A stretch of 31,638 nucleotides of DNA from Deltaproteobacteria bacterium GWA2_38_16 (GTDB taxonomy: Bacteria > Bdellovibrionota > JACOXK01 > 2-02-FULL-40-11): assembly GCA_001797335.1 (NCBI GenBank), contig MGPE01000004.1, positions 1-31,638 on the forward strand, read 5' to 3'. Under the pieces are notes generated by a model. It ran no database searches. It saw only the letters and a list, made by a program, of their open reading frames with translations, and was not told where the DNA came from. Position numbers and translations under genes: made by a program. Positions 6,521 through 27,316 of the stretch are shown one piece after another. How positions within the stretch are numbered: the first letter of the stretch is position 1; each line of letters begins with the position of its first letter.

Positions 6521-7493
6521 GTGTTGTATAAATGAGTTCTTTTATTCCCTCTCCACTGGCGGCTGAGATGGCCAATGTTTTAAATCCTTGCTCTTTAAAC
6601 TGTTTTATATAGCCAATTATTTTTTTTGTATTTTGAAGGGTATCAATTTTACTTAAGATCACAATCTGATTTTTTTTAAGAAGCCGTGGATTATAAAGTC
6701 TTAATTCTTCATTAATTTGTTTAAAACGAGCTAGGGGATCACTGCTATCAGAAATATCAATAAGGTGTAAAAAAAGTTTTGACCGTTCGATATGTTTTAA
6801 AAATTTTATACCTAATCCTATCCCTTGATGGGCACCCAAAATAAGTCCTGGCATATCCGCTACCACAAAGCTTTTTTTTTCTTCCACTCGAACAACTCCC
6901 AAATTAGGCGTAAGGGTAGTAAAAGGATAATTAGCAATTTTGGGTTTTGAGTTTGAAATCCGAGAAAGAAGGGTAGACTTTCCAGCATTGGGAAGGCCAA
7001 TAATACCCACATCACATAAGAGTTTTAATTCTAAAAGAATATCTTTGATCTGGCTGCGTTCTCCAGGTTGAGCCTTCCTGGGGGCCTGATTAATGGAGTT
7101 TTTAAAAAAGTGATTTCCTTTACCTCCGCGTCCTCCTTTAGCAGCTGTAAAAGATTGTTCGTGTTGAGATAAATCTGCCAAGAGCTCTCCTGTTTTTTGA
7201 TCTCGAAATAAGGTTCCTTGGGGAACACGAATGATTAAATCGGTTGCATCGGATCCACTTTTTAATTGTCTTTGTCCAGGATCTCCAGATCGTGCTTTAA
7301 AATTTTTTTTATATTGAAAATCGAGCAGTGTAGAAAGAGAATGATCTGCTACAAAGATGATATCTCCTCCTTTTCCTCCATCCCCTCCATCAGGGCCACC
7401 CCGAGGAATAAATTTTTGTCTGCGGAAATTAATAGATCCGGCTCCGCCCGAGCCAGATTCAATATGGATTATGGCTTCATCAATAAATTTCAT
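6498..7493 (-). CDS. obgE: Obg family GTPase (ObgE/CgtA)
   Basis: 331 residues. The glycine-rich Obg fold (residues 1-160) contains GSGGAGSINFRRQKFIPRGG and many GGxGG turns. It is followed by a GTPase domain with G1 GLPNAGKS at 166-173, DMPGL as G3, ILSKIDT as G4 and a SAAS G5. The variable C-terminal OCT domain is absent, as in many non-Firmicutes. The protein binds the 50S subunit late in assembly and responds to ppGpp in studied species. It follows rpmA by 23 bases, the classic rplU-rpmA-obgE order. Confidence 0.97.
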   Translation of the reverse strand: MKFIDEAIIHIESGSGGAGSINFRRQKFIPRGGPDGGDGGKGGDIIFVADHSLSTLLDFQYKKNFKARSGDPGQRQLKSGSDATDLIIRVPQGTLFRDQKTGELLADLSQHEQSFTAAKGGRGGKGNHFFKNSINQAPRKAQPGERSQIKDILLELKLLCDVGIIGLPNAGKSTLLSRISNSKPKIANYPFTTLTPNLGVVRVEEKKSFVVADMPGLILGAHQGIGLGIKFLKHIERSKLFLHLIDISDSSDPLARFKQINEELRLYNPRLLKKNQIVILSKIDTLQNTKKIIGYIKQFKEQGFKTLAISAASGEGIKELIYTTHEELARS

Positions 7494-7516
7494 ATAAAAA
7501 TAAAGAGGGGAAATAA

Positions 7517-7771
7517 TTAGACGGGGTAAACGCTTACGCGTTTTTTGTTTTTAGCTGTTCTTTCAAAAGTAACGCGCCCCTTAATTTTAGAAAAAAGAGT
7601 AAAGTCGCTACCACAACCAACATTAAATCCAGGATGAATACGAGTTCCTAATTGGCGAAGAATAATAGTTCCTGCATTAATAACTTCTCCACCATAACGT
7701 TTTACGCCTCGTCTTTGTCCCTGACTATCTCGACCGTTACTGGTGCTACCTTGTCCCTTCTTATGTGCCAT
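7517..7771 (-). CDS. rpmA: 50S ribosomal protein L27
   Basis: 84 residues with the canonical N-terminus [20 protein letters not shown]. There is no cleavable N-terminal extension of the Firmicutes type. The L27 signature is present ([15 protein letters not shown]). The N-terminal arm reaches the peptidyl-transferase centre. It begins two bases after the rplU stop. Confidence 0.98.
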
Positions 7772-7773
7772 AC

Positions 7774-8178
7774 TTATTTAGCTTTCTTTACTGCAGAAAC
7801 CTTTTTAGTAACTGGTTTTTTAGATTTAGCAACTTTTTTTGTTTCAGGAGCTGTTTTTGCCGTGACACCTGAAAGGCTAATTTCTTTCACTTTTAATAGA
7901 GTAAGGAATTGACGGTGTCCTCTTTTTCTTCTGGATCCCTTTCGGCGTTTATATTTAAAGATAATGTGTTTTTCACCCTTCTCTTGGCTCATGATTTCGC
8001 ATAAAACTCCAGCCTTCTCAAGATAGGGATTCCCTACTTTTAGATCGGTATCAGAGATTAAGAGAACTTTCGGAAGAATAACTTCTTTTCCCAGAGGGCC
8101 TTCCAGTTTTTCAACTGAAATAAGATCTCCCACTTTTACTTTAAATTGTTTTGTTCCTGTTTCTACCACTGCGTACAT
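7774..8178 (-). CDS. rplU: 50S ribosomal protein L21 with Lys/Ala-rich tail
   Basis: 134 residues. The first roughly 103 are standard L21, with [18 protein letters not shown] and [17 protein letters not shown] (the rRNA-binding loop). About 30 extra C-terminal residues rich in Lys, Ala, Val and Thr follow ([14 protein letters not shown]). Such basic tails occur on L21 in various bacteria and probably add rRNA contacts. The ATG opens directly with the family N-terminus. It is followed closely by rpmA. Confidence 0.97.
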
Positions 8179-8231
8179 AGTATTTCCTTCTAACTACTTA
8201 AAAACGTTATCTTATAAGAATTTTACCCCAC

Positions 8232-10028
8232 TTAGTCAATGGGTTTCTTTTCTTCTTCTGAATTAACCTCAGGTTCTTTTGAGGGCTCTTCTGAAGATTC
8301 TTCAGAAGGGTCATTTTCTTCTTCTGATTCTTCTTCTTCGCTTTCTTCAATATCTTCTTCCTGTTGTGGGTGTGAAGAAAGGGCAGTTTTTTCTAATGAA
8401 GGGCCTTTAAATTCAAATTGTTCAATATGAAAGTCAGGATTAGGTTCAATAATGATTTTTTTATTAATCATTTTTTCAATCTTTCTAAATCCTTCCACTT
8501 CTTCTTCCTGCAAGGTTTTAGCAATGCTGGGATGAACAAAAAGTTGAATTTCTTTGACCGATAAATCTGTATGAAATTTGGAAAGCTCTCTAAAAATTTC
8601 ATAACAAACGGTTTTATTGTTTTTTACAAAACCTTTCCCCTCGCAATAAAAACAAGGGCTGCATAAGGTTTGAATAAGGCTTTCTCGGGTTCTTTTGCGA
8701 GTCATTTCGATAAGACCCAATTCAGAAATTTTTACAATAGAGTTTTTAGCACGATCTTTTCTTAAGGAGTCTTCAAAAGTACGATATACTTTTTCCCTAT
8801 GGTGATGTCTTTCCATATCGATAAAATCAACAATAATAATGCCACCACAGTTTCTAAGCCTTAATTGGTAGGCAATTTCCCTGGCTGCTTCTAAGTTAAT
8901 TTTTAAAATGGTATCTTCAAAATTTCTTTTCCCAACATATCGACCTGTATTGACATCAATCACCGTTAAAGCCTCAGCTTGATCGACGATAATATAACCC
9001 CCAGATTTTAACCATACGCGCCTTCCCATGGCTCGGTTAATTTCTGCCTCAACTCCATAGGTGTCAAAAATGGGTTCTCGCCCTTTATAAAATTTGACTA
9101 CTCGTTTTAAGGAGGGATTAAAATTTTCTAGGAAACGAAGAATTTGTTTATGATCCTTTTTAGAATCAATGACAATGCGATCAATGTCATCAACAAACAT
9201 GTCTCTTAAGGTGCGTAAAACAATGTTGAGTTCTTCGTGAAGCAAATAGGGGGAAGGAGCTTGGACTAAATCTTTTTCAATCTCCCTCCAAATTTTTAAG
9301 AGGTAATCTAAGTCAGCTTTAATTAAGCGCGGTTTTTTATTTTCACTGGCAGTTCGAATAATAACGCCCACATCATTGGGGCAATTGTCTTGAACAAAGT
9401 CTTTAAGTCTTCGCCGTTCTTTGTCAGAAGCAATACGTCGAGAAACTCCGATGTATCTAAAAGTGGGCATTAATACTAAATTTCTTCCAGGGATAGAAAG
9501 ATGCATCGTTAGCCTAGCCCCTTTAGTTCCAATGGGATTTTTAGTGACTTGAACTAAAACTTCCTGTCCTTCTTGGAGAAGTTCACCAATGTTTGGGGGT
9601 TGATGATTTCTAGATCGTCTAAAACGACGATTGTCTTGATATGATGGCCTTTCAGCAGGCACCCCTTGAGGAGGAGGTTCTGTGGATGTTTCCAAAGAAG
9701 GTTGCTGAGATTGCTCTTCTGCTAAAACATCGACATCATGATCATCTTCAAAATCTTCAATCCCAGGCAGATGATGTTGTGGAAAATCAGTGGTTTTTTC
9801 AGATAAAAATACATCCCCAGCGTATAAAAAGGCAGCTTTTTCTAAACCAATATCTACAAAAGCGGCCTGCATTCCAGGAAGTACGCGGGCAACTTTGCCT
9901 TTATAAATATTTCCAACAATTCCTTTATCTTGGGTTCTTTCGATATAAAGTTCAGCGACTGTACCTTTTTCAATGAGGGCAACTCGGGTTTCTTGCTCTG
10001 TGGCATTAATAATAAGTTCGTTACTCAT
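8232..10028 (-). CDS. rng: Ribonuclease E/G family endoribonuclease
   Basis: 598 residues. The N-terminus NELIINATEQETRVALIE is RNase-G-like. The S1 domain (from about residue 37) is split by an acidic, Pro/Gln-rich insertion around residues 75-145. The 5'-sensor and catalytic domain contains TVIDVNTG and GGIIIVDFIDM, with the two metal-binding aspartates, and a zinc-link CSPCFYC. The last roughly 50 residues are strongly acidic, mostly Glu and Ser, and probably disordered. The family starts mRNA decay and trims rRNA. The tail is much shorter than the E. coli RNase E scaffold and no RhlB or enolase sites were recognised, so RNase G-like is the safer name. Placement ahead of rplU-rpmA is common. 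Confidence 0.93.
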   Translation of the reverse strand: MSNELIINATEQETRVALIEKGTVAELYIERTQDKGIVGNIYKGKVARVLPGMQAAFVDIGLEKAAFLYAGDVFLSEKTTDFPQHHLPGIEDFEDDHDVDVLAEEQSQQPSLETSTEPPPQGVPAERPSYQDNRRFRRSRNHQPPNIGELLQEGQEVLVQVTKNPIGTKGARLTMHLSIPGRNLVLMPTFRYIGVSRRIASDKERRRLKDFVQDNCPNDVGVIIRTASENKKPRLIKADLDYLLKIWREIEKDLVQAPSPYLLHEELNIVLRTLRDMFVDDIDRIVIDSKKDHKQILRFLENFNPSLKRVVKFYKGREPIFDTYGVEAEINRAMGRRVWLKSGGYIIVDQAEALTVIDVNTGRYVGKRNFEDTILKINLEAAREIAYQLRLRNCGGIIIVDFIDMERHHHREKVYRTFEDSLRKDRAKNSIVKISELGLIEMTRKRTRESLIQTLCSPCFYCEGKGFVKNNKTVCYEIFRELSKFHTDLSVKEIQLFVHPSIAKTLQEEEVEGFRKIEKMINKKIIIEPNPDFHIEQFEFKGPSLEKTALSSHPQQEEDIEESEEEESEEENDPSEESSEEPSKEPEVNSEEEKKPID

Positions 10029-10081
10029 ATGTTTTTCTCTCTTCGTTTAAGATGACAGTATTTACGAGTAACTTTTAAGAC

Positions 10082-10330
10082 TTAGGCACTTGCAGCTTTG
10101 CAAGGTTTGTCTGATTTTGCACAAGCAGAAGATGAGGACGGTTGCTCTGTTTTTTTGGCGTAATCTGTTGCATACCAACCTTTTCCTTTAAGTTGAAAGG
10201 AACTCTGAGATACCATTTTTTCAATGGTACCCCCACATTCCATACAAGTCTTTTTTGGCTTATCTGAAATTTTTTGAAAGATCTCAAATCTTCTGTGACA
10301 TTTTCTGCAAGTATACTCGTAAACTGGCAT
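10082..10330 (-). CDS. FmdB family zinc-ribbon protein
   Basis: 82 residues. It starts MPVYEYTCRKC, with zinc ligands C8/C11 and C29/C32 (TCMECGG), the FmdB/CxxC_CXXC_SSSS regulatory domain. The middle FQLKGKGWYATDY is also typical. A short Ser/Ala/Lys tail carries two more cysteines. FmdB was first linked to regulation of formamidase, but most members have no known role. A competing frame at 10075-10287 lacks the zinc motif and is not real. The ATG at 10330 has AAGG five bases upstream. It lies 53 bases ahead of the RNase E/G gene. Confidence 0.92.
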   Translation of the reverse strand: MPVYEYTCRKCHRRFEIFQKISDKPKKTCMECGGTIEKMVSQSSFQLKGKGWYATDYAKKTEQPSSSSACAKSDKPCKAASA

Positions 10331-10395
10331 AAAAACCTTTTATTAAAATTTAATTGTCAAATAACTCTTACTTTTAAGGTGTAACACTAAAGAAT

Positions 10396-10427
10396 AAAAA
10401 AATCAACCCTCTAAAAGCCGATTTTTT
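10396..10427. terminator. Possible AT-rich terminator between plsC and fmdB
   Basis: AAAAAATC (10397-10404) can pair with GATTTTTT (10420-10427) around a 15-base loop. On the minus strand the hairpin follows the plsC stop and ends in a T run. The stem is almost all A:T, so its strength is doubtful. A TTGACA on the minus strand at 10360-10355 lies in the same gap, but no suitable -10 was found for it. Confidence 0.35.
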
Positions 10428-11262
10428 AAGCATTTTTAGGCTGATTTTCATAAGCCTTAATCCGGTTATACTCTTCTTGTGTCATAGGAACGGCTTGAGG
10501 AATAAAATTTCTAGAGTGATCTATAAGCGCAGAGATTTTTCCCATGAGTTCGTCTGTCAACGTTCGCAAAAGCTCTTTGGTAAGGGGAGTGTGATCATAG
10601 GAAGATAAGTCCCATGGTTTCCCAAATTTAACAGTAATTTTAACAGGCTTTGGAATGGGCAATTTTTCTCCTCTGGGTACAGCTTCTGGGCATAGTGCTT
10701 TTCCAGTTCCAGAAATGCCAACAGGAACAATAGGAACTTTAGCCTTTAAAGCTAAACGAATAGCTCCTGTTTTTCCTTTAAGGAGCCCTGTTTTAGCTTC
10801 TACGGCTGAGCGGGGAATGTCTTCTTCTGCAGGTATGGTTCCTTCTGGAAAAATGGACAATAGATGGCCCTCTTTTAAAAGCCCAGCAAAAAAATCTAAT
10901 GCCTCATTATCTCCTCCCCGAACAATGGGATAGGATCCTCCCAGTTCAATCAAAGGGCCTAAAATAGGGATTTTAAAATTTTCTATTTTCGACACAAACG
11001 TCACCGTGCGCCACGCGCAAATTCCAACCAGGGGAGGATCCAGATAACTTTGGTGATTGGCTGCTAAAATGATGCCTCCTGTTTTAGGAATGTTGTTATG
11101 TCCAATAATTTCAAGTCTAAAGTAAAGTTTGTGAAGAATAAAAAGTATAGCGCGCGTAAGGGTTCTTAAAAGAAAGGCCACGAAGGATTTTAACTTTAAA
11201 AATATTAAGACTTTTAGAAGTAATCGTAAAGAAGCATCTATTAAAGAAATAATAAATTTCAT
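10426..11262 (-). CDS. plsC: 1-acyl-sn-glycerol-3-phosphate acyltransferase family protein
   Basis: 278 residues. Hydrophobic N-terminal segments (about residues 1-47) suit membrane attachment. Motif I is NHQSYLD (H70, D75) and motif III is FPEGT, with PIVPVGISGTG as motif IV. These acyltransferases put the second acyl chain on lysophosphatidate in phospholipid synthesis. The C-terminus adds a short extension (MTQEEYNRIKAYENQ) beyond the typical 240-residue enzyme. The start overlaps the acylphosphatase stop by 4 bases (ATGA-type coupling). The exact acyl acceptor cannot be told from sequence. Confidence 0.9.
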   Translation of the reverse strand: MKFIISLIDASLRLLLKVLIFLKLKSFVAFLLRTLTRAILFILHKLYFRLEIIGHNNIPKTGGIILAANHQSYLDPPLVGICAWRTVTFVSKIENFKIPILGPLIELGGSYPIVRGGDNEALDFFAGLLKEGHLLSIFPEGTIPAEEDIPRSAVEAKTGLLKGKTGAIRLALKAKVPIVPVGISGTGKALCPEAVPRGEKLPIPKPVKITVKFGKPWDLSSYDHTPLTKELLRTLTDELMGKISALIDHSRNFIPQAVPMTQEEYNRIKAYENQPKNA

Positions 11263-11619: not shown

Positions 11620-12423
11620 ATGGACCATCTTATTGAGCGCGTTACAGAAGAAGTGAAGAATAGACTTTTAGCGCAAGGGCTAAAAGATCACAAAAGTTCT
11701 ATCTTAAAACAGCCGATAACATTTACGATGCCCCCTAAAGCTAAAGAAGAGAAAAAAGAATTTGATCTGGCTTCTTACATTGATCACACCCTTTTAAAGC
11801 CAGATGCCAGCCATGAACAGCTTAAAAAGCTCTGCGAAGAAGCCATTCAATATCATTTTGCAACGGTCTGTGTGAATAGTTCTAATGTGGCCTATGTGGC
11901 TACTCTGCTTCGAGGTTCAGAGGTAAAACCCATTGCTGTCGTAGGATTTCCTCTAGGAGCAGCTTCCACCTCTGCCAAGGCCTTTGAAGCCAAAGAAGCC
12001 ATTCAAGTGGGGGCCAAAGAAATTGATATGGTCATTAATATTGGGGCATTAAAAAGTCGAGATTACACACTGGTCACGGCTGATATTGTAAAAGTAGTTG
12101 AAGCGTCAAAGCCCTATCCTGTAAAAGTAATTTTAGAAACAGCCATGCTAACAGAAGAAGAAAAAATTATTGCCTGTGTGCTTTCCAAGATTGCCGGTGC
12201 AGCCTTTGTAAAAACTTCAACCGGTTTTGGTCCGGGAGGAGCGACTGTAGAAGATGTAAAACTTATGCGACGAATTGTGGGAAAAGAAATGGGAGTAAAA
12301 GCCAGTGGGGGAGTTAAAACCTATAATGATGCGATGAAAATGATAGAAGCTGGGGCTAATCGGATTGGAACGAGTAACGGAATTACTATTGTTACCGGCA
12401 AAGGTAAGTCTTTTGGATATTAA
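11620..12423 (+). CDS. deoC: Deoxyribose-phosphate aldolase with N-terminal encapsulation-peptide-like helix
   Basis: 267 residues. The aldolase domain starts near residue 48 (LASYIDHTLLKP). It cleaves 2-deoxyribose-5-phosphate to glyceraldehyde-3-phosphate and acetaldehyde. Schiff-base K198 lies in AAFVKTSTGFG, with D136 (EIDMVINIG) and K227 (VKASGG) completing the catalytic set. Residues 1-47 are extra compared with ordinary DeoC. Residues 2-17 form an amphipathic helix (hydrophobic I5, V8, V12, L16) and residues 18-47 are a Lys/Pro-rich linker. This is the layout of microcompartment targeting peptides. The ATG at 11620 is chosen from the promoter position. Its 3' end overlaps the deoB start. 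It is the first gene of the nucleoside operon. Confidence 0.95.
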   Translation: MDHLIERVTEEVKNRLLAQGLKDHKSSILKQPITFTMPPKAKEEKKEFDLASYIDHTLLKPDASHEQLKKLCEEAIQYHFATVCVNSSNVAYVATLLRGSEVKPIAVVGFPLGAASTSAKAFEAKEAIQVGAKEIDMVINIGALKSRDYTLVTADIVKVVEASKPYPVKVILETAMLTEEEKIIACVLSKIAGAAFVKTSTGFGPGGATVEDVKLMRRIVGKEMGVKASGGVKTYNDAMKMIEAGANRIGTSNGITIVTGKGKSFGY

Positions 12424-13585
12424 AAGAGTTTTGATTTTGGTGTTGGATGGAGTTGGAATTGGAGCGCTGCCAGATGCCCATCAGTATGGCGATGAAGGCT
12501 CTCATACCTTAAAACATATTTCTGAAAAAGTAACCATGAAGCTTCCCACGCTTTCTAAGTTGGGACTCAGTCATATTGATCAAGATTTAAAAATAGAAAA
12601 AAATACATCTCCCATTGGATCTTTTGGAAAAATGTTGGAAGCCTCTCCTGGAAAAGATACTTCTACGGGGCATTGGGAAATGGTGGGAATTCATTTGGAT
12701 AAACCTTTCCCTACATTTTTAAACGGTTTTCCTAAAGAACTCATCGATCAATTTATTCAAAAAACGGGAGTTGGAAAAATTTTAGGAAATAAAGCAGCTT
12801 CTGGCACAGAAATTATTAAAGAACTAGGCGAGGAACACCTAAAAACAGAATATCCCATCGTGTACACCTCTGCCGATTCTGTATTTCAAGTGGCGTGTCA
12901 CGAAGATATTTTTCCTCTAGAAGAGCTTTATCATCTTTGTAAAATAGCAAGACGTCTGTGTGACCCCTATGGCATTGGGCGAGTCATTGCCCGGCCTTTT
13001 AATGGAGACAGTGCTAAAACATTTTCCAGGACTCCTTATCGAAAAGATTTTGTATATGAACTTCCCGAGCCCATGCTTTTAGATTTTTTAACGCAACAAA
13101 AAGTTCCTGTGGTTGGAGTTGGAAAAATTTCAGATATTTTTAATCACCAAGGGGTGGGGCGATCTTTAAAAACAAAATCTAATGTAGAAGGATTAAACAC
13201 GACTATTCAAGAAATGAAGACCTTAAAAAGAGGATTGTTATTTACTAACCTCATTGATTTTGACCAACAGTATGGCCATAGAAATGATGTGGAAGGATAT
13301 GCCAGGGCGCTAGAAGAATTGGACCAGAAATTACCCGATATTATGGAAACAATAGGATCTGATGGGCTCATGATCATCACCTCTGATCATGGAAATGATC
13401 CTACCCATCCAGGGACAGATCACACACGGGAATATGTGCCTCTTTTAGTGTATAGCCCTTCTTTTCAGAGTAAAAATTTAGGGATTCGAAAAACTTTTTC
13501 AGATATTGGACAAACAGTAGCAGAAATTTTTGGTCTTGCTCCCCTAAAACAGGGAACTAGTTTCTTAAAAGAACTCATGTCATGA
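12413..13585 (+). CDS. deoB: Phosphopentomutase
   Basis: About 390 residues from a TTG at 12413, overlapping the deoC stop. AAGG lies about 8 bases upstream and the family N-terminus IKRVLILVLDGVGIGALPDA follows at once, so the longer open frame to 12365 is rejected. It converts (deoxy)ribose-1-phosphate to the 5-phosphate. Alkaline-phosphatase-superfamily metal sites are visible: the Asp of LDGVG, the phosphothreonine region KDTSTGHWEM, DFDQQYGHRND, and TSDHGNDPTHPGTDHTRE. It feeds DeoC and receives sugar phosphates from the two phosphorylases of the same operon. Confidence 0.96.
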   Translation: MDIKRVLILVLDGVGIGALPDAHQYGDEGSHTLKHISEKVTMKLPTLSKLGLSHIDQDLKIEKNTSPIGSFGKMLEASPGKDTSTGHWEMVGIHLDKPFPTFLNGFPKELIDQFIQKTGVGKILGNKAASGTEIIKELGEEHLKTEYPIVYTSADSVFQVACHEDIFPLEELYHLCKIARRLCDPYGIGRVIARPFNGDSAKTFSRTPYRKDFVYELPEPMLLDFLTQQKVPVVGVGKISDIFNHQGVGRSLKTKSNVEGLNTTIQEMKTLKRGLLFTNLIDFDQQYGHRNDVEGYARALEELDQKLPDIMETIGSDGLMIITSDHGNDPTHPGTDHTREYVPLLVYSPSFQSKNLGIRKTFSDIGQTVAEIFGLAPLKQGTSFLKELMS

Positions 13586-14886
13586 GAGCAGTCGACATTA
13601 TCTACAAAAAAAGAGAAGGCCAAGCCTTAACTCAAGAAGAAATCTCTTTTTTAGTAAAGGGGTTTACTTCCAACGAAATCCCAGATTATCAGATGTCTGC
13701 ATTTCTCATGGCTTGTTTTTTTAATCCGCCCAGTTTTAAAGAAGCTACTTATTTAACAAAAAGTATGCTCTATAGCGGAAAGATATTTGATTTTTCCACC
13801 ATTCCTTTTCCAAAAGTCGACAAACATTCTACGGGCGGTGTGGGGGACAAAACCTCTCTTATTATTGCTCCCATTGTGGCGTCTTATGATGTGGCCGTTC
13901 CCATGATTTCGGGACGAGGACTGGGGCATACCGGAGGAACTTTGGATAAACTAGAATCCATCCCTGGATTTAACGTAAATCTTACTTTTCAAGAATTTGA
14001 AGAAAATCTTAAAAATATAAATGTATCGATGATGGGGCAAACTCAAGAAATTGCCCCAGCCGATGCTAAAATGTATGCATTAAGAGATGTGACGGCAACG
14101 GTAGAATGTATTCCTTTAATTACCGCTTCCATCATGAGTAAAAAATTAGCCGAAGGGACAGATGGTTTAGTGCTGGATGTAAAATTTGGAGATGGGGCGT
14201 TTATTCAAGATTTTAAAAAAGCCTGTGAATTGGCTCAGTGGATGGTGAAAATTGGAAAATCATTTGGGAAAAAAGTCATAGCCTTGGTGACCAATATGGA
14301 TCAACCCTTGGGAAATAAAGTGGGAAATAGTTTAGAAGTGGAAGAATCGATTGATGTCTTAAAAGGCCAAGGCCCCAAAGATTTAGAAGAGCTTAGTCTT
14401 AAATTGAGTGGGTATATGTTGCTTTTGGGAAAAGTGGCAAAATCTCTGCCAGAAGGGATCAAACTTTCTCAAAAAGCCATTGAAAATGGAAAAGCATTAG
14501 CAAAATTTAAAACGATGGTAAAAACTCATGGAGGAGATGAAAGCGTTGTGGATTCTTTTACTTGTTTACCAAAAGCGGCATATAAACAAGAATTTTTGGC
14601 CTCTAAAAATGGGTTTATTCAAAAAATTCAAGCTAAAGACATGGGGCTAGCAGCGGCTCTTTTAGGATGTGGCCGAAATACCATCACCGATACGGTGGAT
14701 TCTTCCGTAGGATTTACCCTTCATCAGAAAGTGGGTGATAAGGTTCAAAAAGGAGAAACGCTCTTGACTATTTACTATAATGATGAGAAAAAGCTTGCCG
14801 CAAGTATGGCCAAATTAAATACAGCCTATGCGATCAGTCAAAAAAGGCCTCGTTTTCAACCTCTTATTCGAAAGGTAATTTCTTAA
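13582..14886 (+). CDS. pdp: Pyrimidine-nucleoside phosphorylase / thymidine phosphorylase
   Basis: 434 residues, the length of family II nucleoside phosphorylases. The family pattern appears as KHSTGGVGDKTS near residues 81-92 (phosphate binding) and SGRGLGHTGGTLDKLESIPG. A C-terminal biotinyl-like alpha/beta domain contains VGDKVQKGETLLTIY. It splits uridine, thymidine or deoxyuridine to base plus (deoxy)ribose-1-phosphate. Whether it is a dedicated thymidine phosphorylase (deoA) or a broad Pdp cannot be decided by eye. The ATG overlaps the deoB stop by 4 bases. Confidence 0.93.
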   Translation: MRAVDIIYKKREGQALTQEEISFLVKGFTSNEIPDYQMSAFLMACFFNPPSFKEATYLTKSMLYSGKIFDFSTIPFPKVDKHSTGGVGDKTSLIIAPIVASYDVAVPMISGRGLGHTGGTLDKLESIPGFNVNLTFQEFEENLKNINVSMMGQTQEIAPADAKMYALRDVTATVECIPLITASIMSKKLAEGTDGLVLDVKFGDGAFIQDFKKACELAQWMVKIGKSFGKKVIALVTNMDQPLGNKVGNSLEVEESIDVLKGQGPKDLEELSLKLSGYMLLLGKVAKSLPEGIKLSQKAIENGKALAKFKTMVKTHGGDESVVDSFTCLPKAAYKQEFLASKNGFIQKIQAKDMGLAAALLGCGRNTITDTVDSSVGFTLHQKVGDKVQKGETLLTIYYNDEKKLAASMAKLNTAYAISQKRPRFQPLIRKVIS

Positions 14887-14913: not shown

Positions 14914-16350
14914 ATGTCTAATACGGAAGAGAAAACACTAGGTGAAACCATGGCTACTTCTTTAGATACGTCTTCTCAAGAACGAGTAGGTTGGTTAACC
15001 GCAGGAAAGCTTATCCTTCTCAGTATAATTTCTTTAGGAGTTATTGTAGCACTTTTATCTTTAAGTGGAGAACCTGACACGTTAGTTTTGAGAGATCGGA
15101 TGATCAGTTTTTGGGGATTATTTATACTCATGGGTATAGCCTATCTTATGTCCAACAATCGCTCAGCCATTAGTTTAAGAGTAGTTATTTCTGGAATTCT
15201 CATTCAACTGGCCTTTGCATTGGCTGTGATGAAAACGCATGCTGGCCAAGTTTTTTTTCAAGTGATTGGAAATGCGTTTAGTGGACTTTTAGCGTTTACC
15301 AATAAAGGGGCGGCCTTTCTTTTTGGAGAAAAACTTTTAGACTCAACCAATTTTAGTTTTATTTTTGCTTTTCAAGTGTTACCTACCGTGATTTTTGTTT
15401 CTTCGGTGACAGCGGTTCTTTATTATTTTGGTGTGTTACAACGCGTGGTAGGAGCCATGGCGTGGGTGATGACAAAGCTCATGAAAATTTCTGGTGCTGA
15501 ATCGCTTTCGTCTGCCGTCAATGTCTTTGTGGGGCAAACAGAAGCTCCTTTATTTATTAGACCCTACGTTCCTCGGATGACGAATTCTGAACTTATGGTG
15601 GTGATGACGGGTGGTTTTGCAACGATTGCAGGAGCGGTCATGGCAGCGTACGCCATCTTTTTAAAACAAGCAGGTTTGGCAACAGGTCCCGGGCATTTAT
15701 TGGCAGCCAGTGTGTTATCAGCACCGGCAGCGATTGTAATGGCTAAAATTATGTTTCCTGAAACAGGGAAACCAGAAACCGCAGGATCTGGGACTGTTAA
15801 TATTCCTATTACTGATGTAAATGCTATTGATGCTGCAGCGCGAGGAGCTTCTGAAGGATTGAGATTAGCCGTAAATGTGGGAGCCATGCTCTTAGCCTTT
15901 ATTGCTTTTATTGCTCTTTTTAACTGGGTTGTAGGAGAGGGGCTTGATAAACTTTTGGTTTGGCAAGGTTTTTCTCCCCTTCAATTATCCTTAGAAAAAT
16001 TGTTTGGATGGGCATTTTCACCCCTGGCTTGGATAATGGGAGTGCCTTGGAAAGATTGTATTCAAGTGGGAAATCTTTTAGGCCAAAAAACCATTATTAA
16101 TGAATTTGTGGCCTATTTAAATTTAGCACCCATGGTGAAAGAAGGAACCATTTCTTTAAGGTCCCAAATTATTGCGCTTTATGCTCTTTGTGGATTTTCA
16201 AATCTTTCTTCTATAGCCATTCAACTGGGAGGCATTGGCGTTTTGGCTCCAGATCGTAGAGGAGATTTAGCAAGACTGGGCTTAAGAGCCATGATTGCAG
16301 GATCACTGGCTTGCTTTATGACAGCCTGTTTTGCTGGAATGCTTATTTAA
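14914..16350 (+). CDS. nupC: Concentrative nucleoside transporter (NupC/CNT family)
   Basis: 478 residues with about ten hydrophobic segments. Conserved CNT motifs are VGQTEAPLFIRPYVPRMTNS, GGFATIAGAVMAAY and CGFSNLSSIAIQLGGIG. The protein sits in the inner membrane and imports nucleosides with Na+ or H+. The N-terminal roughly 30 residues are a polar, Ser/Thr/Glu-rich cytoplasmic lead not found in short NupC proteins. Shine-Dalgarno AAAGGAGA precedes the ATG. Its place between the pyrimidine and purine phosphorylases supports uptake of external nucleosides for breakdown. Confidence 0.95.
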   Translation: MSNTEEKTLGETMATSLDTSSQERVGWLTAGKLILLSIISLGVIVALLSLSGEPDTLVLRDRMISFWGLFILMGIAYLMSNNRSAISLRVVISGILIQLAFALAVMKTHAGQVFFQVIGNAFSGLLAFTNKGAAFLFGEKLLDSTNFSFIFAFQVLPTVIFVSSVTAVLYYFGVLQRVVGAMAWVMTKLMKISGAESLSSAVNVFVGQTEAPLFIRPYVPRMTNSELMVVMTGGFATIAGAVMAAYAIFLKQAGLATGPGHLLAASVLSAPAAIVMAKIMFPETGKPETAGSGTVNIPITDVNAIDAAARGASEGLRLAVNVGAMLLAFIAFIALFNWVVGEGLDKLLVWQGFSPLQLSLEKLFGWAFSPLAWIMGVPWKDCIQVGNLLGQKTIINEFVAYLNLAPMVKEGTISLRSQIIALYALCGFSNLSSIAIQLGGIGVLAPDRRGDLARLGLRAMIAGSLACFMTACFAGMLI

Positions 16351-17169
16351 ATGACCGATCGTGCTTTTGTAAAAGAAGCAGCTCAATTTTTACAAGAAAA
16401 ATTTCAAGAAAAAGCGTCCCTTGCCATTGTCTTAGGTTCTGGATTGGGCAATTTTGTTGATTCCATCAAAAATAAGAAATCCATTTCTTATTCTCAGATT
16501 CCTCATTTTCCAAAATCAACCGTTTCGGGGCACGAGGGTAATTTTGTTTGGGGAAAGATAGAAGACGTTTCTCTTTTTATTTTACAAGGCCGGGTTCATT
16601 ATTATGAGGGGCATGATTTTAATGCGGTGACCTTTCCCATTCGGGTTTTAAAAGAGCTCAATGTTAAAACCCTTGTTGTTACCAATGCTGCCGGCATTGT
16701 TCGTACTTCTTTTAAGCCGGGAGAGCTTATGTTGATTAAAGATCATATTAATTTGATGGGGCATAATCCTTTGCGAGGGGAAAATGAAGAAGCCTGGGGC
16801 CCTAGATTCCCCGACATGTCCGAAGCCTATGATAAAAAATATTTAAGTATTGCTAAAAAAGTAGCTCGAACTTTAAAACTAGCTGTTCGAGAAGGGGTTT
16901 ATGTAGGGGTCAATGGCCCTAGTTATGAAACGCCGGCTGAGATTAAAATGTTAAAAACACTGGGGGCAGATGCCGTGGGAATGTCCACGGTTCCAGAAGT
17001 CATTGTGGCCAATCATCAAGAAATGAAGGTTTTAGGAATTTCTTGTCTTTCCAATTACGCGGCCCATACAGGCTCAAGGCTTTCTCACCAAGAAGTTTTA
17101 GATATTGGTAAAAAAGTTTCCGAAAAGTTTGGACTTTTTCTTAAAAATCTTGTTATGCATATGAGATGA
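16351..17169 (+). CDS. punA: Purine-nucleoside phosphorylase (trimeric, PNP-I)
   Basis: 272 residues. The phosphate loop LGSGLGNF, SGHEGNFVWG, QGRVHYYEGH and NGPSYETPAEI are present, as is GADAVGMSTVPE. The base-binding Asn of SCLSNYAA points to 6-oxopurines (inosine, guanosine and their deoxy or 5'-deoxy forms). It yields base and (deoxy)ribose-1-phosphate for DeoB. The ATG follows the nupC stop with no gap. The hypoxanthine product could be recovered by the hpt gene 7 kb downstream. Confidence 0.95.
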   Translation: MTDRAFVKEAAQFLQEKFQEKASLAIVLGSGLGNFVDSIKNKKSISYSQIPHFPKSTVSGHEGNFVWGKIEDVSLFILQGRVHYYEGHDFNAVTFPIRVLKELNVKTLVVTNAAGIVRTSFKPGELMLIKDHINLMGHNPLRGENEEAWGPRFPDMSEAYDKKYLSIAKKVARTLKLAVREGVYVGVNGPSYETPAEIKMLKTLGADAVGMSTVPEVIVANHQEMKVLGISCLSNYAAHTGSRLSHQEVLDIGKKVSEKFGLFLKNLVMHMR

Positions 17170-18188
17170 ATTTACCAGAAATTGGGCTATTTGGGATTTT
17201 AATCCTTGTTTTTACGGCTCCCTTTCTTTTTAAATCCATTGAACATAATTTAGAAATATTTTTATTTGCGATGGGCTGTTTAGCCGTGTCTATAACCGGT
17301 AGCTGGAATATGCACCTTGTCAGTGAAGCATTCAGAGAACCTCTTCCGATTAGTAGCGTTGTGTTAGGAGCGGGACTTTTATTTAAATGGAGCAGAAAAA
17401 AACTGGAAAGTGGAATTCAAGCGCTCTTAACCCGTATTCCTTTATCGATATTTATTTTTCTTCTCATTGTTTTATTGGGAGTACTTTCAAGCATTATTAC
17501 AGCTATTATTGCTGCTCTTATTTTGGTAGAAGTGATTTCAATCTTAAAATTAGATCGAACTTCAGAGATTCATATTACGATTATTGCCTGCTTTTCTATT
17601 GGATTAGGTGCTGCCCTAACGCCCATAGGAGAACCTTTAAGTACGATTGTGGTAGCTAAGCTACATCAAGATTTTTGGTATTTATTTAAAAATTTTGGAA
17701 TTTTAATTTTGCCGCCTATTTTTGTTTTAGGATTTTTTGCGCCCTTGTTTCATAAACCTTCTAAAGAGGGTCTAGAAGCTACTTCTTGGAAAGAAGAAGA
17801 TTCTATAAAGTCTGTGATCATTAGAGCGCTTAAAGTATATGTATTTGTGATGGCGCTTTTATTTTTAGGAGCGGGATTTAAATCCCTCATTAATACGTAT
17901 CTTATTGTTCTTTCCAGTGGAGTTTTATTTTGGTTAAATATGGCCTCTGCTGTTTTAGATAATGCAACATTAGCGGCGGCAGAAATTAGCCCAACTCTTA
18001 GCCATGTTCAAATAAAATCTATTCTCATGGCGCTTTTAATTAGTGGCGGAATGCTTATCCCTGGAAATATTCCTAATATTATTGCAGCCAGTAAACTTAA
18101 AATTAAAAGCCGAGAATGGGCAAAGCTCGGCGTTCCCCTGGGACTTGTCATGATGTTCATTTATTTTTTGATTTTACATATCATCTGA
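17166..18188 (+). CDS. DUF1646 family membrane protein, putative cation transporter
   Basis: 340 residues with about nine to ten hydrophobic helices. It contains ALTPIGEPLSTIVVAKL and, near the end, NIPNIIAASKLKIKSREWAK, features of the DUF1646/ion-transporter superfamily related to NhaD and ArsB-like antiporters. The paired PIGEPLST and PGNIPNIIAA segments resemble the two helix-hairpin tips of that superfamily. Its transported ion is unknown. It overlaps punA by 4 bases (ATGA). Being inside the nucleoside operon, it may rebalance Na+ or H+ consumed by NupC. That is inference. Confidence 0.8.
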   Translation: MNLPEIGLFGILILVFTAPFLFKSIEHNLEIFLFAMGCLAVSITGSWNMHLVSEAFREPLPISSVVLGAGLLFKWSRKKLESGIQALLTRIPLSIFIFLLIVLLGVLSSIITAIIAALILVEVISILKLDRTSEIHITIIACFSIGLGAALTPIGEPLSTIVVAKLHQDFWYLFKNFGILILPPIFVLGFFAPLFHKPSKEGLEATSWKEEDSIKSVIIRALKVYVFVMALLFLGAGFKSLINTYLIVLSSGVLFWLNMASAVLDNATLAAAEISPTLSHVQIKSILMALLISGGMLIPGNIPNIIAASKLKIKSREWAKLGVPLGLVMMFIYFLILHII

Positions 18189-18207: not shown

Positions 18208-18609
18208 ATGGATACTCGCTTCTTAATTAATAAAGCCATTGAAGCTCGAAAAAAAGCCTATGCCCCCTATTCAAGACATAAAGTGGGAGCTGTGGCGGTG
18301 GCAAGCGATGGGGGGCTTTATACCGGATGTAATATTGAAAATTGTGTATTTTTAGGAGAGTGTGCAGAACGAGTGGCCATTTACAAAGCCTTAAGCAGTG
18401 GAGCAAAAAAAATTGTAAAAATTGTTGTGGTAACCGGAAATAAAAAACTTTCTCCTCCTTGTGGAATTTGCAGGCAAGTCATGCGAGAATTTAATCCAAA
18501 GCTTGAAATTGTTGTAGCCAATCTACAAAAAGAATTTAAAATTTTAACCCTTCAGGATCTTTTGCCCTATTCTTTTGGCCCAGATTCCTTTCGACTAGGA
18601 CAAGATTAA
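18208..18609 (+). CDS. cdd: Cytidine deaminase
   Basis: 133 residues, the short tetrameric type. Zinc ligands C52, C85 and C88 and catalytic E54 are visible in GECAERVA and PPCGICRQVM. YAPYSRHKVGAV is the substrate loop. It converts cytidine and deoxycytidine to uridine and deoxyuridine, which the pyrimidine phosphorylase can split. It lies 19 bases after the DUF1646 gene and 7 before the amidohydrolase. Confidence 0.96.
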   Translation: MDTRFLINKAIEARKKAYAPYSRHKVGAVAVASDGGLYTGCNIENCVFLGECAERVAIYKALSSGAKKIVKIVVVTGNKKLSPPCGICRQVMREFNPKLEIVVANLQKEFKILTLQDLLPYSFGPDSFRLGQD

Positions 18610-18616
18610 GAAAAAA

Positions 18617-19909
18617 ATGAAACCCCTCCTCATTAAAAATGGGACCGTTGTGACCATGAATCCGTTAAGAGAAACCTTAGCGGCAGATATCCTCATTGAA
18701 AATAACAAAATTAAAAAAATAGGAAAAAATCTTAAAATTCCTTCCGCTCAGATTATTGAGGCTAAGAATACTTGGGTGCTTCCAGGCCTTATTCAAACAC
18801 ATGTGCACCTGTGCCAAACTCTTTTTAGAAACCAAGCAGAAGATTTAGAACTGTTAGATTGGCTAAAAGAAAAAATTTGGCCATTAGAAGGGGGGCACAC
18901 AGAAAAAAGTGTGTTTTTATCTGCTCAGTTAGGCATTGCTGAACTTTTAAAAAGTGGGACCACAACTATTTTAGATATGGGAACGGTTCATCATACGGAT
19001 CAGATTTTTAAAGCCTGCGAAGAACTTGGAATTCGCGCTTTCTCAGGAAAAGCGATGATGGATGAGGGAAATGATATTCCTCGTGGACTTCAAGAATCAA
19101 CCCAAGATTCCCTAAAAGAGACCAAAAGACTCATTGAAAAATGGCATGGAGCTGCGCAAGGAAGGCTAAAGTATGCCTTAGCTCCCAGGTTTGTCCTTTC
19201 TTGTAGTGAAAAACTCTTGCGAGAAGTTCAAAAAATAGCTCAAGAAAAAAATCTACTTATTCATACGCATGCTTCTGAAAATAAAAAAGAGTGTGAGGAA
19301 GTTCAAAAACAAAAAGGAAAAACAACCATTGGCTATTTACACCAATTAGGATTATGTGGTCCTCATTCTTCTTTTGCCCATGGTGTGTGGCTTAATGATG
19401 AGGAATTAGAGATTCTTTCAAAAACAAAAACCAATATTTCTCACTGTCCTTCTTCAAATTTAAAATTAGGTTCGGGTATTGCCAATACTCCTAAAATGTT
19501 AGAGCAAGGCATTAATGTGGGATTAGGAGCAGATGGGGCTCCCTGCAATAATAATCTAGATATATTTCAAGAGATGAGATTAGCGGCACTTATTCAAAAA
19601 CCCTTGAGAGGAGTTAAAACCTTATCTTCTCAAACGGTTTTTGAAATGGCGACCTTAAAAGGCGCCAAAGCGTTGGGTTTAGAACAAGAAATAGGCAGTA
19701 TTGAGGTTGGGAAGAAAGCGGATATTGTTTTAGTTTCTAAGAATGTCTTACATGCCCTCCCTAATTCTGACCCTTATACGACACTCGTCTATTCTACCCC
19801 TGCCTCAGATGTACAAACCGTCATTGTAGATGGAAAAGTGGTCGTCAAAAACCGAAAAATTTTAACTACTTCTGAAGAAGACTTATTAGATTCAATCAAT
19901 TTCAGTTGA
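18617..19909 (+). CDS. Amidohydrolase, 5'-deoxyadenosine/adenosine-type deaminase (MtaD/DadD group)
   Basis: 430 residues. The composite beta-sandwich plus TIM barrel carries the metal set H-x-H in HVHLCQTLFRN, a His in HTHASE, a His in SSFAHGVWL and the Asp of GLGADGAP. SHCPSSNLKLGSG is also typical. These are the marks of the group that deaminates 5'-deoxyadenosine, S-adenosylhomocysteine, methylthioadenosine or adenosine, often misnamed chlorohydrolase. Guanine deaminase or another amidohydrolase is less likely but cannot be excluded. In this operon it would turn an adenine nucleoside into an inosine-type nucleoside for PunA. Confidence 0.88.
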   Translation: MKPLLIKNGTVVTMNPLRETLAADILIENNKIKKIGKNLKIPSAQIIEAKNTWVLPGLIQTHVHLCQTLFRNQAEDLELLDWLKEKIWPLEGGHTEKSVFLSAQLGIAELLKSGTTTILDMGTVHHTDQIFKACEELGIRAFSGKAMMDEGNDIPRGLQESTQDSLKETKRLIEKWHGAAQGRLKYALAPRFVLSCSEKLLREVQKIAQEKNLLIHTHASENKKECEEVQKQKGKTTIGYLHQLGLCGPHSSFAHGVWLNDEELEILSKTKTNISHCPSSNLKLGSGIANTPKMLEQGINVGLGADGAPCNNNLDIFQEMRLAALIQKPLRGVKTLSSQTVFEMATLKGAKALGLEQEIGSIEVGKKADIVLVSKNVLHALPNSDPYTTLVYSTPASDVQTVIVDGKVVVKNRKILTTSEEDLLDSINFS

Positions 19910-24000: not shown

Positions 24001-24530
24001 AACCAAAAGAATATAAAGAAAATTTAAAAGTTTTGTTATCTGAAGAAATGCTTCAAAGGCGCATTCAAGAATTAGGAGCAAAAATTACCCAAGATTATAA
24101 GGGGAAAAAGCTCGTTATTGTGTGTATTTTAAAAGGGGCTTTTATGTTTTGTGCAGATTTGATTCGTCATATTGATCTGCCCTTAAGTTGTGACTTTTTT
24201 GGTGTGGCAAGCTATGGAGATTCCACAAAATCCTCAGGAATTTTACAAACGACCTTAGATGTGAGTAGTTCTTTAGAAGGCAAAGATGTTTTGATTGTAG
24301 AAGATGTGGTGGATACGGGACTGACGATTGAATATCTTCAACGGTATTTTTCTTCTAAAAATCCAAAATCCATTAAACTGTGTTCGCTTCTTTTGAAACC
24401 TAAAAGCTTAAAACAAAAAATTCAGGTTGATTATTGTGGTTTTGAAATTGGCGATGAATTTGTGGTGGGCTATGGCATGGATGCTGCTCAACACTACCGA
24501 AATTTAAAATATCTAGCGGTTTTGACTTAA
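23997..24530 (+). CDS. hpt: Hypoxanthine phosphoribosyltransferase
   Basis: 177 residues. The PRPP loop VLIVEDVVDTGLT, ILKGAFMF and the flexible loop FFGVASYGDSTKSSG are all typical. It recovers hypoxanthine or guanine as IMP or GMP. The purine bases released by PunA are its obvious source. It begins within the end of the UPRTase-like gene (ATGA) and its 3' end overlaps the converging aldolase gene by 18 bases. Confidence 0.95.
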   Translation: MKPKEYKENLKVLLSEEMLQRRIQELGAKITQDYKGKKLVIVCILKGAFMFCADLIRHIDLPLSCDFFGVASYGDSTKSSGILQTTLDVSSSLEGKDVLIVEDVVDTGLTIEYLQRYFSSKNPKSIKLCSLLLKPKSLKQKIQVDYCGFEIGDEFVVGYGMDAAQHYRNLKYLAVLT

Positions 24531-25220
24531 GAATTTCTGAACTTCTTCAGCTACAATTTGATCTAAAGGAAGTGTCTGAGAAGAAGGTGAAGAAGAAGGC
24601 GGTTTAGGGCGTCCTAATCCTGCCTTTTGTCTTTTTTCAAGAAGGGCCTGAATAAGATCTTGGGATAAAGGTTTTGGATTTCCTAAAGGCTTTGAATACC
24701 ATTCAATTTTAGCCAAATGTTCTACGAGTTCTAAGCGATAATAAGCTTGGGCCAAGGTGCTTCCAACTGCTAAAACTCCATGGTTTTTTAGTAAAAAAAC
24801 ATCGTAATAGTTTAAATATTCGGAAAGTTTTTTTTCACAAATAAGGGGAACTTCTTCACCCAAAGTGACGATGGCTTCGGCAATATATATTTTTTGAAGA
24901 GGAGTCTGGCTTACCGCAAAAGAAGTAGCCATGGGCGGATGCGCATGTACGATTGCTTGAATATCTGGCCTAGAATGATAACAGGTTAAGTGAAGATTGA
25001 TTTCTGAAAAAATATTATAGGTGCCGGCTATTTTTTTACCTTCTTGGTTTAAGGTTACCAGCATTTCTTCTGTAACGTCTCCCTTACTTTGGGCGGTAGG
25101 GGTGGCTATAATTTTTGTTCCAGATTTAACAGAAATATTTCCATCGTGATTGGCGACAAAGCCCTTGGCGTAAAGTTTATGAGAAAACTGGACGATGTGG
25201 TTTTTTATTTTTGATTCCAT
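24513..25220 (-). CDS. Class II aldolase/adducin family protein with C-terminal encapsulation-peptide-like helix
   Basis: 235 residues. Zinc ligands are H92 and H94 (HAHPP) and H147 (LLKNHG). E73 is the catalytic acid (FSEINLHL). This is the fuculose/rhamnulose/ribulose-phosphate aldolase-epimerase family. After the usual end near residue 200, a Gly/Pro/Ser linker (203-218) leads to a short amphipathic helix (219-233, LDQIVAEEVQKFLSQ). This matches the form of microcompartment targeting peptides and resembles the extra helix of DeoC in this window. A candidate reaction is cleavage of 5-deoxyribulose-1-phosphate to DHAP and acetaldehyde. Fuculose-1-phosphate cleavage is also possible. AAGGTG precedes the ATG. 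Confidence 0.88.
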   Translation of the reverse strand: MESKIKNHIVQFSHKLYAKGFVANHDGNISVKSGTKIIATPTAQSKGDVTEEMLVTLNQEGKKIAGTYNIFSEINLHLTCYHSRPDIQAIVHAHPPMATSFAVSQTPLQKIYIAEAIVTLGEEVPLICEKKLSEYLNYYDVFLLKNHGVLAVGSTLAQAYYRLELVEHLAKIEWYSKPLGNPKPLSQDLIQALLEKRQKAGLGRPKPPSSSPSSQTLPLDQIVAEEVQKFLSQNR

Positions 25221-26827: not shown

Positions 26828-27316
26828 ATGATGAACCATAAAAATAATGGGAATGAATACATAACAAAAGATTTCTTAAAGGAAGCTTTTAATGATTTTG
26901 CACATCAATGGATTGTACCCCTCCATGCAGAGATAAAAACGATCAAGGAAGATGTAGAGGTTCTCAAAAAAGATGTCAAGGTTCTGAAAGAAGACGTGAA
27001 GGTGCTTAAAGAAGACGTGAAGGTGCTTAAAGAGGACGTGAAGGTGCTTAAAGAGGATGTACGAATTCTCAAAGAGGACGTGAAGGTTCTTAAAGAAGAT
27101 GTGAAGGTTCTTAAAGAAGATGTGAGAGTTCTGAAAGAGGATGTAAATGTACTAAAAGCAGATATGAAAAAAGTCAAATCTGATATTGCTGAAATGAAAA
27201 TAGATATCTCAGAGCTTAAACAAGAAATGAGAGAGGTAAAAAAAGTTCAAAAAAAACAAGATGTTCAAATTACTGCTTTTAAAGATTTTATTCGTTTTGG
27301 GGGTCGCTTAAGTTGA
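26828..27316 (+). CDS. Heptad-repeat coiled-coil protein, function unknown
   Basis: 162 residues with no signal peptide, cysteine or membrane segment. Residues 1-40 form a mixed lead (YITKDFLKEAFNDFAHQW). Residues 41-110 are ten nearly identical heptads of the form EDVKVLK, and residues 111-138 are four more degenerate heptads. The tail is KVQKKQDVQITAFKDFIRFGG. With V, V and L spaced at regular core positions, this should be one long parallel or trimeric coiled coil of about 15 nm. Repeat number is probably variable between strains. A good AAGGAG precedes the ATG; a second ATG follows at once. Its stop overlaps the pgpA TTG start. The role is unknown. Confidence 0.85.
   Translation: MMNHKNNGNEYITKDFLKEAFNDFAHQWIVPLHAEIKTIKEDVEVLKKDVKVLKEDVKVLKEDVKVLKEDVKVLKEDVRILKEDVKVLKEDVKVLKEDVRVLKEDVNVLKADMKKVKSDIAEMKIDISELKQEMREVKKVQKKQDVQITAFKDFIRFGGRLS
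26948..27157 (+). repeat. Tandem 21-bp repeat array encoding EDVKVLK heptads
   Basis: Ten in-frame 21-bp units lie head to tail. Units three to five (26990-27052) are nearly identical in DNA, reading GA(A/G)GACGTGAAGGTGCTTAAA, while outer units differ mostly at third positions. Degenerate units continue to 27241. The pattern suggests expansion by slippage or unequal exchange from a central unit. Confidence 0.9.

What the first reader, a model, noticed from the sequence alone, without database searches (positions are those of the whole stretch)
11620..11760. DeoC carries an N-terminal microcompartment-type targeting helix
Residues 1-47 precede the aldolase domain. Residues 2-17 (DHLIERVTEEVKNRLL) make an amphipathic helix with I5, V8, V12 and L16 on one face. 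A Lys/Pro-rich linker of about 30 residues follows. Normal DeoC proteins start close to the DHT segment. This layout is the known form of encapsulation peptides that direct enzymes into bacterial microcompartments. Sugar-phosphate-utilising (SPU) microcompartment loci are known to contain DeoC-type aldolases. No shell gene lies in this window, so the compartment would be encoded elsewhere.
Basis: partly seen in the sequence, partly recalled or inferred. Interest (0 to 1): 0.82.

Follow-up and report, generated by a model that had tools for sequence, protein, structure and literature searches.

The report
Nucleoside aldolase tagged for bacterial organelle

Summary
Observation confirmed, interpretation supported. 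DeoC (11620-12423 +) has an amphipathic helix (residues 2-18, confident in AlphaFold2), a disordered linker (23-46) and an intact aldolase core. The AldDH has a similar N-terminal helix. Among 70 readable DeoCs of the phylum, the EP motif occurs in 8 of 9 shell-bearing genomes and 1 of 61 shell-negative ones, the exception being a 61%-complete MAG. A sister genus without detected shell genes lacks the extension. Two relatives encode shell, AldDH, EP-DeoC and a class II aldolase in one locus. A second probable cargo lies in the window: a class II aldolase (24513-25220 -) with a conserved C-terminal helix. Sutter et al. 2021 already noted distal, EP-like DeoC in HO-type genomes, so this is a new member of a known kind. 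What is added: the nucleoside-operon context, the second tagged aldolase, and a testable idea that both aldolases feed acetaldehyde into one shell. Encapsulation itself is inferred, not shown.

The parts
11620..12423 (+). DeoC, deoxyribose-phosphate aldolase, 267 aa, with N-terminal encapsulation peptide and linker
   Evidence: TIGR00126 equivalog 271.6 bits vs cut-off 117.3 over residues 50-258; DeoC-invariant D136, K198, K227
11623..11670 (+). encapsulation-peptide helix DHLIERVTEEVKNRLL (residues 2-17)
   Evidence: helix 2-18 in AF2; motif score 28.4; only genome hit of an outside-trained profile; conserved without indels
11671..11763 (+). flexible linker (residues 18-48), variable in length among relatives
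   Evidence: pLDDT below 50 at 23-46; 5-13 residue insertions among family members
12365..13585 (+). phosphopentomutase-like protein (deoB): deoxyribose-1-P to deoxyribose-5-P; the ORF call from 12365 overlaps deoC, the true start may be later
   Evidence: PF01676 Metalloenzyme; next to deoC in all family members examined; function assigned from family and context
13582..14886 (+). pyrimidine-nucleoside/thymidine phosphorylase
   Evidence: TIGR02644, NF004490 above cut-offs
14914..16350 (+). NupC-type nucleoside transporter
   Evidence: PF07662, PF01773, PF07670
16351..17169 (+). purine nucleoside phosphorylase
   Evidence: TIGR01700 350.8 vs 293.4; NF006054 380.3 vs 218
18208..18609 (+). cytidine deaminase
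   Evidence: TIGR01354, NF004064 above cut-offs
18617..19909 (+). 5'-deoxyadenosine deaminase-type amidohydrolase; possible feeder of the second aldolase
   Evidence: NF005557 611 vs cut-off 522
24513..25220 (-). class II (FucA/DrdA-type) aldolase with a C-terminal helix behind a Pro/Ser linker; second probable cargo
   Evidence: PF00596; best solved match 6btd = DrdA; linked to shell genes in L161 and G089
24516..24566 (-). C-terminal encapsulation-type helix LDQIVAEEVQKFLSQNR (residues 219-235)
   Evidence: helix 219-233 in AF2, low confidence with 4 sequences; conserved in G001-G005 and absent from class II aldolases of shell-negative families

Best explanation
Residues 1-20 of DeoC are an encapsulation peptide (EP) joined by a floppy linker to an ordinary deoxyribose-phosphate aldolase. 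The EP delivers the enzyme into an HO-type bacterial microcompartment whose shell and acylating aldehyde dehydrogenase are encoded elsewhere in the genome (contig C18). [quoted passage not shown] A class II aldolase encoded 12 kb away, with a C-terminal EP, is probably a second cargo. Shown here: the gene content, the helix/linker/core layout (sequence and predicted structure), conservation of the helix, co-occurrence with shells, and one-locus relatives. Inferred: encapsulation, substrate flow, the operon as one transcript, and the class II aldolase's substrate.
For: Shell and AldDH genes in the same genome. Shell proteins closest among solved structures to H. ochraceum HO-5815, HO-5816 and the 5v74 BMC-P. 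The C18 locus is syntenic (ligA/thioesterase flank, hldE/rsmE flank) in several family members and matches the window in G+C, which argues against contamination. The AldDH N-terminus is a similar helix, conserved in relatives. EP motif in 8 of 9 shell-bearing and 1 of 61 other genomes. Sister pair G006 (shell, EP) and G007 (no PF00936 or PF03319 match, no EP) nested inside the EP clade, implying joint loss. L161 and G089 carry shell, AldDH, EP-DeoC and a class II aldolase in one locus. AF2 layout. Helix constrained, linker drifting. BMC-H keeps AMVKAA and an AATEAGARSA stretch resembling the PduA groove residues to which EPs bind (PMC11157265; sequence).
Against: No experiment. G076 has shell genes but a DeoC without EP, from a different DeoC lineage. 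G005 has the EP but no shell gene was found (61% complete). No PduL, phosphotransacetylase or Fe-ADH match was found in this genome, so the acetyl-CoA exit and NAD recycling are unexplained. The helix is not extreme by hydrophobic moment. Training windows for the motif were registered by hand, and the association is not corrected for phylogeny beyond collapsing to families.
Confidence: 0.88

Rival explanations
1. The helix is an oligomerisation, stability or partner-binding element of DeoC unrelated to any shell.
For: Several shell-negative relatives carry unrelated N-terminal extensions with amphipathic stretches (G061, G080, G104, G112). DeoC enzymes are oligomeric.
Against: Those extensions do not match the motif (all p > 0.01). 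The motif tracks shells, resembles the AldDH helix, and in a sister genus extension and shell are both absent.
Confidence: 0.06
2. The EP is real but a relic: the C18 compartment now serves another substrate and DeoC works mainly in the cytosol.
For: DeoC lies in a nucleoside operon, away from the shell locus; no PTAC or Fe-ADH was found to complete a classic core.
Against: The helix is under stronger constraint than the linker across the family, and no other EP-bearing enzyme except the class II aldolase and AldDH stood out in the genome.
Confidence: 0.05
3. The helix targets another protein compartment (encapsulin) or only drives cargo condensates without a shell.
For: DeoC is associated with Family 4 encapsulins in archaea (PMC8346489); EPs can drive condensates on their own (PMC12339742).
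Against: The genome has a full BMC shell set, and the one-locus relatives pair EP-DeoC with BMC shells. Encapsulin genes were not searched for here.
Confidence: 0.02

Closest known systems
HO-type BMC (Haliangium ochraceum; Sutter et al. 2021, PMC8217296)
   Same: Three BMC-P, HO-like BMC-H and BMC-Tdp, AldDH; DeoC at a distant site with an EP-like N-terminal extension, as the paper reports for some HO genomes. Myxobacterial loci L156/L157 show EP-DeoC near two BMC-P and a class II aldolase.
   Different: Here DeoC is inside a nucleoside uptake/phosphorolysis operon, and the class II aldolase has its own C-terminal EP (none in the L156/L157 class II aldolases). The paper calls HO function enigmatic; this context points to nucleosides.
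SPU (sugar phosphate utilization) BMC
   Same: EP-bearing DeoC with AldDH and BMC-P paralogues; predicted acetaldehyde chemistry from nucleic-acid sugars.
   Different: No RpiB gene at the C18 shell locus; DeoC is not in the shell locus; no PduL match.
SPU-like / ACI / PVM / GRM5 BMCs with PF00596 class II aldolase
   Same: A class II aldolase is part of the system; in ACI it carries a C-terminal EP (PMC8217296).
   Different: Here it accompanies an EP-DeoC; its best solved match is DrdA (5-deoxyribulose-1-phosphate aldolase), though no NCBIfam model reaches its cut-off.
DHAP shunt / 5-deoxyribose disposal (DrdA, Ald2)
   Same: MtnA isomerase in the genome, a 5'-deoxyadenosine deaminase and a PNP in the window, and a FucA/DrdA-type aldolase that could release acetaldehyde + DHAP.
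   Different: Not clustered as a drd or mtnK-mtnA-ald2 operon; MtnA is common in the phylum (57 of 114 genomes); substrate untested.

Membership tests
BMC cargo with N-terminal encapsulation peptide | 15-20 residue amphipathic helix at a terminus joined by a flexible linker | tested here: met
BMC cargo with N-terminal encapsulation peptide | resembles EPs of shell-locus enzymes | tested here: met
   score 28.4, null 99.99% 14.3; sole hit, E 0.049
BMC cargo with N-terminal encapsulation peptide | genome encodes a complete shell (hexamer, trimer, pentamer) | tested here: met
BMC cargo with N-terminal encapsulation peptide | physical packaging in the lumen | not testable with these tools
   needs co-expression or purification
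HO-type BMC | BMC-P triplet | tested here: met
   three PF03319 proteins on C18; assignment to the gray/orange clades of the triplet not done
HO-type BMC | HO-like BMC-Tdp and BMC-H | tested here: met
   HO-5816 E 1.4e-82; HO-5815 E 3.5e-44
HO-type BMC | AldDH in the HO/SPU5/SPU7 branch | not tested
   no reference AldDH tree was built
SPU BMC | DeoC-type PF01791 aldolase in the locus | tested here: inconclusive
   DeoC with EP is present but encoded away from the shell locus
SPU BMC | RpiB-type PF02502 isomerase in the locus | tested here: not met
   none among the C18 ORFs, read by eye; genome not searched for RpiB
classic metabolosome core | PTAC (PduL) and alcohol dehydrogenase | tested here: not met
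   no PF06130, no PF01515, no PF00465 match in this genome; zinc-type ADH not searched

The most novel reading that the evidence does not exclude
A single HO-type microcompartment acts as a general acetaldehyde chamber for nucleoside sugars: one tagged aldolase (DeoC) cleaves deoxyribose-5-phosphate from DNA, and a second tagged aldolase (class II, DrdA-like) cleaves 5-deoxyribulose-1-phosphate from 5'-deoxyadenosine (deaminase, PNP, MtnA), both feeding the same AldDH. This would assign a function to HO BMCs and place 5'-deoxyadenosine salvage in an organelle.
Probability: 0.3. Interest if true: 0.7.

Novelty: new member of a known kind. Interest (0 to 1): 0.5.

Why it matters
The HO shell has been the main structural model of BMC shells, yet Sutter et al. 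2021 call its organelle's function enigmatic and give only brief mention to distal, EP-like DeoC. This genome places EP-DeoC in an operon with a nucleoside transporter, purine and pyrimidine nucleoside phosphorylases and phosphopentomutase. That turns 'perhaps nucleic-acid catabolism' into a specific, testable substrate route, and identifies a second tagged aldolase. It also shows cargo encoded with the shell genes in two relatives and dispersed into metabolic operons in the window's family.

Tried and rejected
Hydrophobic-moment scoring of N-termini does not separate EPs from other extensions. An unsupervised motif search over shell-adjacent DeoCs was captured by duplicates and cysteine-rich linkers and was dropped. 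PduL, Pta and Fe-ADH searches found nothing in this genome. The idea that C18 is contamination was rejected by synteny and G+C. The idea that N-terminal tails of shell-negative relatives are the same EP was rejected by motif score; PF03319 is also absent from 11 such or closely related genomes and from G005 and G007. MtnA co-occurrence is uninformative because MtnA is widespread. The profile contains this genome's own sequences, so it is used only to say that no further EP candidate stood out; one search is the independent version.

Full report
Checking the observation. The window lies on contig C4 of a 2.0 Mb, 19-contig genome rated 100% complete. DeoC is 267 aa from ATG 11620; residues 1-47 precede the aldolase core, which matches TIGR00126 over residues 50-258. 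In relatives the same start codon before DHLI is kept. AlphaFold2 predicts helix 2-18 (block pLDDT 83-84), a disordered stretch 23-46, and a confident barrel. Within the family the helix is 53-79% identical to this one with no indels, while the linker is 25-42% identical with 5-13 inserted residues; in the closest pairs helix dN is 0.00-0.05 against linker dN 0.17-0.38 (short alignments, so these are rough).

PF00936 and PF03319 both ring in the genome, all on contig C18. Read in full, C18 has, on one strand: BMC-Tdp (10406-11065), BMC-H (10062-10406), BMC-P (9748-10038), AldDH (8315-9742), BMC-T (7763-8314), BMC-P (7476-7766), BMC-P (7192-7479). The closest solved relatives of BMC-Tdp, BMC-H and the first BMC-P are Haliangium ochraceum shell proteins (the organism of entries 5djb and 5v74 is from the HO- names and from memory). 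The BMC-T is nearer to PduT-type proteins. The AldDH starts MREIRDDQISYVVEKVLERLNG, a helix of the same design, conserved in relatives. Flanking genes (ligA and a thioesterase on one side, hldE and rsmE on the other) are shared by several family members.

Co-occurrence. Of 114 genomes in the phylum, nine have PF00936; 107 match the DeoC query, some only through distant relatives. N-termini were read for 70. A matrix built from 11 shell-adjacent DeoC helices of other phyla, registered by hand, gives p < 0.001 for nine genomes and p > 0.01 for all others: eight of nine shell-bearing genomes and one shell-negative genome (G005, 61% complete) carry the motif. G076, the shell-bearing exception, has a DeoC from a separate lineage. 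In the tree G006 (shell, EP) and G007 (89% complete, no shell gene found, no EP) are sisters inside an EP-bearing clade (support 99/92), the pattern expected if tag and shell are lost together. G007's assembly is not complete, so the shell's absence is likely but not certain. A profile made only from other genomes' DeoC and AldDH helices finds one place in this genome, the DeoC helix, at E 0.049.

One-locus relatives. Bacteriovoracaceae SZUA-425 (L161) has BMC-H, BMC-P, AldDH, an RnfC/PduS-like protein, BMC-T, two BMC-P, EP-DeoC, BMC-Tdp, a class II aldolase with a C-terminal helix, and a triosephosphate isomerase in a row (the RnfC-like assignment is, the isomerase was read by eye). G089 has class II aldolase, BMC-Tdp, BMC-H, BMC-P, AldDH, BMC-T, two BMC-P and EP-DeoC. 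Apart from the place of BMC-Tdp in L161, the shell/AldDH order is that of C18. The window's family has the same parts in three places: the C18 locus, the nucleoside operon, and the salvage cluster at 22-25 kb of the window.

The second aldolase. The class II aldolase at 24513-25220 (-) ends in a Pro/Ser linker and LDQIVAEEVQKFLSQNR. G001-G005 keep this kind of helix behind linkers of very different length, and L161 and G010 have comparable ends; class II aldolases of shell-negative families end near residue 201 of the query without it. G005 (shell not found) also has it, and G006 and G089 have shell genes but no such tail, so the class II tag is less tightly tied to shells than DeoC's. Its best solved match is 6btd, which is DrdA, a 5-deoxyribulose-1-phosphate aldolase that yields acetaldehyde, but 4c24, a fuculose-phosphate aldolase, scores nearly as well. 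With the 5'-deoxyadenosine deaminase-type protein and PNP in the window and MtnA on contig C1, a route from 5'-deoxyadenosine to acetaldehyde is possible; this is inference.

Mechanism. NupC imports nucleosides; phosphorylases release deoxyribose-1-phosphate; phosphopentomutase gives deoxyribose-5-phosphate; DeoC cleaves it in the shell; AldDH makes acetyl-CoA. Enzyme assignments rest on family models and established pathway knowledge; flow and packaging are inferred. EPs of this design bind the groove between shell hexamers in the Pdu system (PMC11157265), and this genome's BMC-H keeps the AMVKAA motif found there. How acetyl-CoA leaves and NAD+ is recycled is unknown, since no PduL, Pta or Fe-ADH match was found.

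Comparison with the known. Sutter et al. [quoted passage not shown] They also describe HO satellite loci with two BMC-P and an aldolase, which L156/L157 resemble. The present case is therefore a new member of a known kind. The organism belongs to a family whose named members are 'Deltaproteobacteria bacterium' groundwater MAGs (contig lengths of L153 and L154 equal those of G004:C66 and G001:C18); placement in Bdellovibrionota is inferred from named relatives. A search for 'microcompartment' with 'Bdellovibrionota' returned three papers, none on this subject by title and abstract; the library is incomplete, so this is weak evidence on novelty.

Noticed in passing
L213, L214, L216, L217, L220, L222, L224-L232: In shell-linked loci from many phyla DeoC is read in one frame behind an RpiB-like domain, with an EP-like helix between the two in most of them, so the EP would be internal.
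   Followed up: no
L155-L160, L162, L166-L171: Myxobacterial DeoCs have a cysteine-rich segment (such as CAPSCDVCPNVDSCGT) between the EP-like helix and the core.
   Followed up: no
L008:7486-7508 and 9648-9670: A 23-bp dispersed repeat (CATCCTGAGCGAAGCGAAGGATC type) lies in frame in the AldDH EP-core linker and at the end of a BMC-P gene, giving HPERSEGS; L112 holds two close copies.
   Followed up: partly
L008:6353-7195 (-): A 280-aa protein with a signal-peptide-like start and no Pfam match follows the last BMC-P gene and is conserved beside the shell locus in G001-G004 and G010.
   Followed up: partly
window 26828-27316 (+): Coiled-coil protein built of near-identical LKEDVKV heptads.
   Followed up: no
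L050 (G061), L084 (G080): Shell-negative relatives with N-terminal amphipathic extensions on DeoC that do not match the EP motif well; purpose unknown.
   Followed up: partly
window 17166-18188 (+): DUF1646 membrane protein inside the nucleoside operon; no match to it was found in the fetched deoC regions of the relatives. Possibly a transporter.
   Followed up: no
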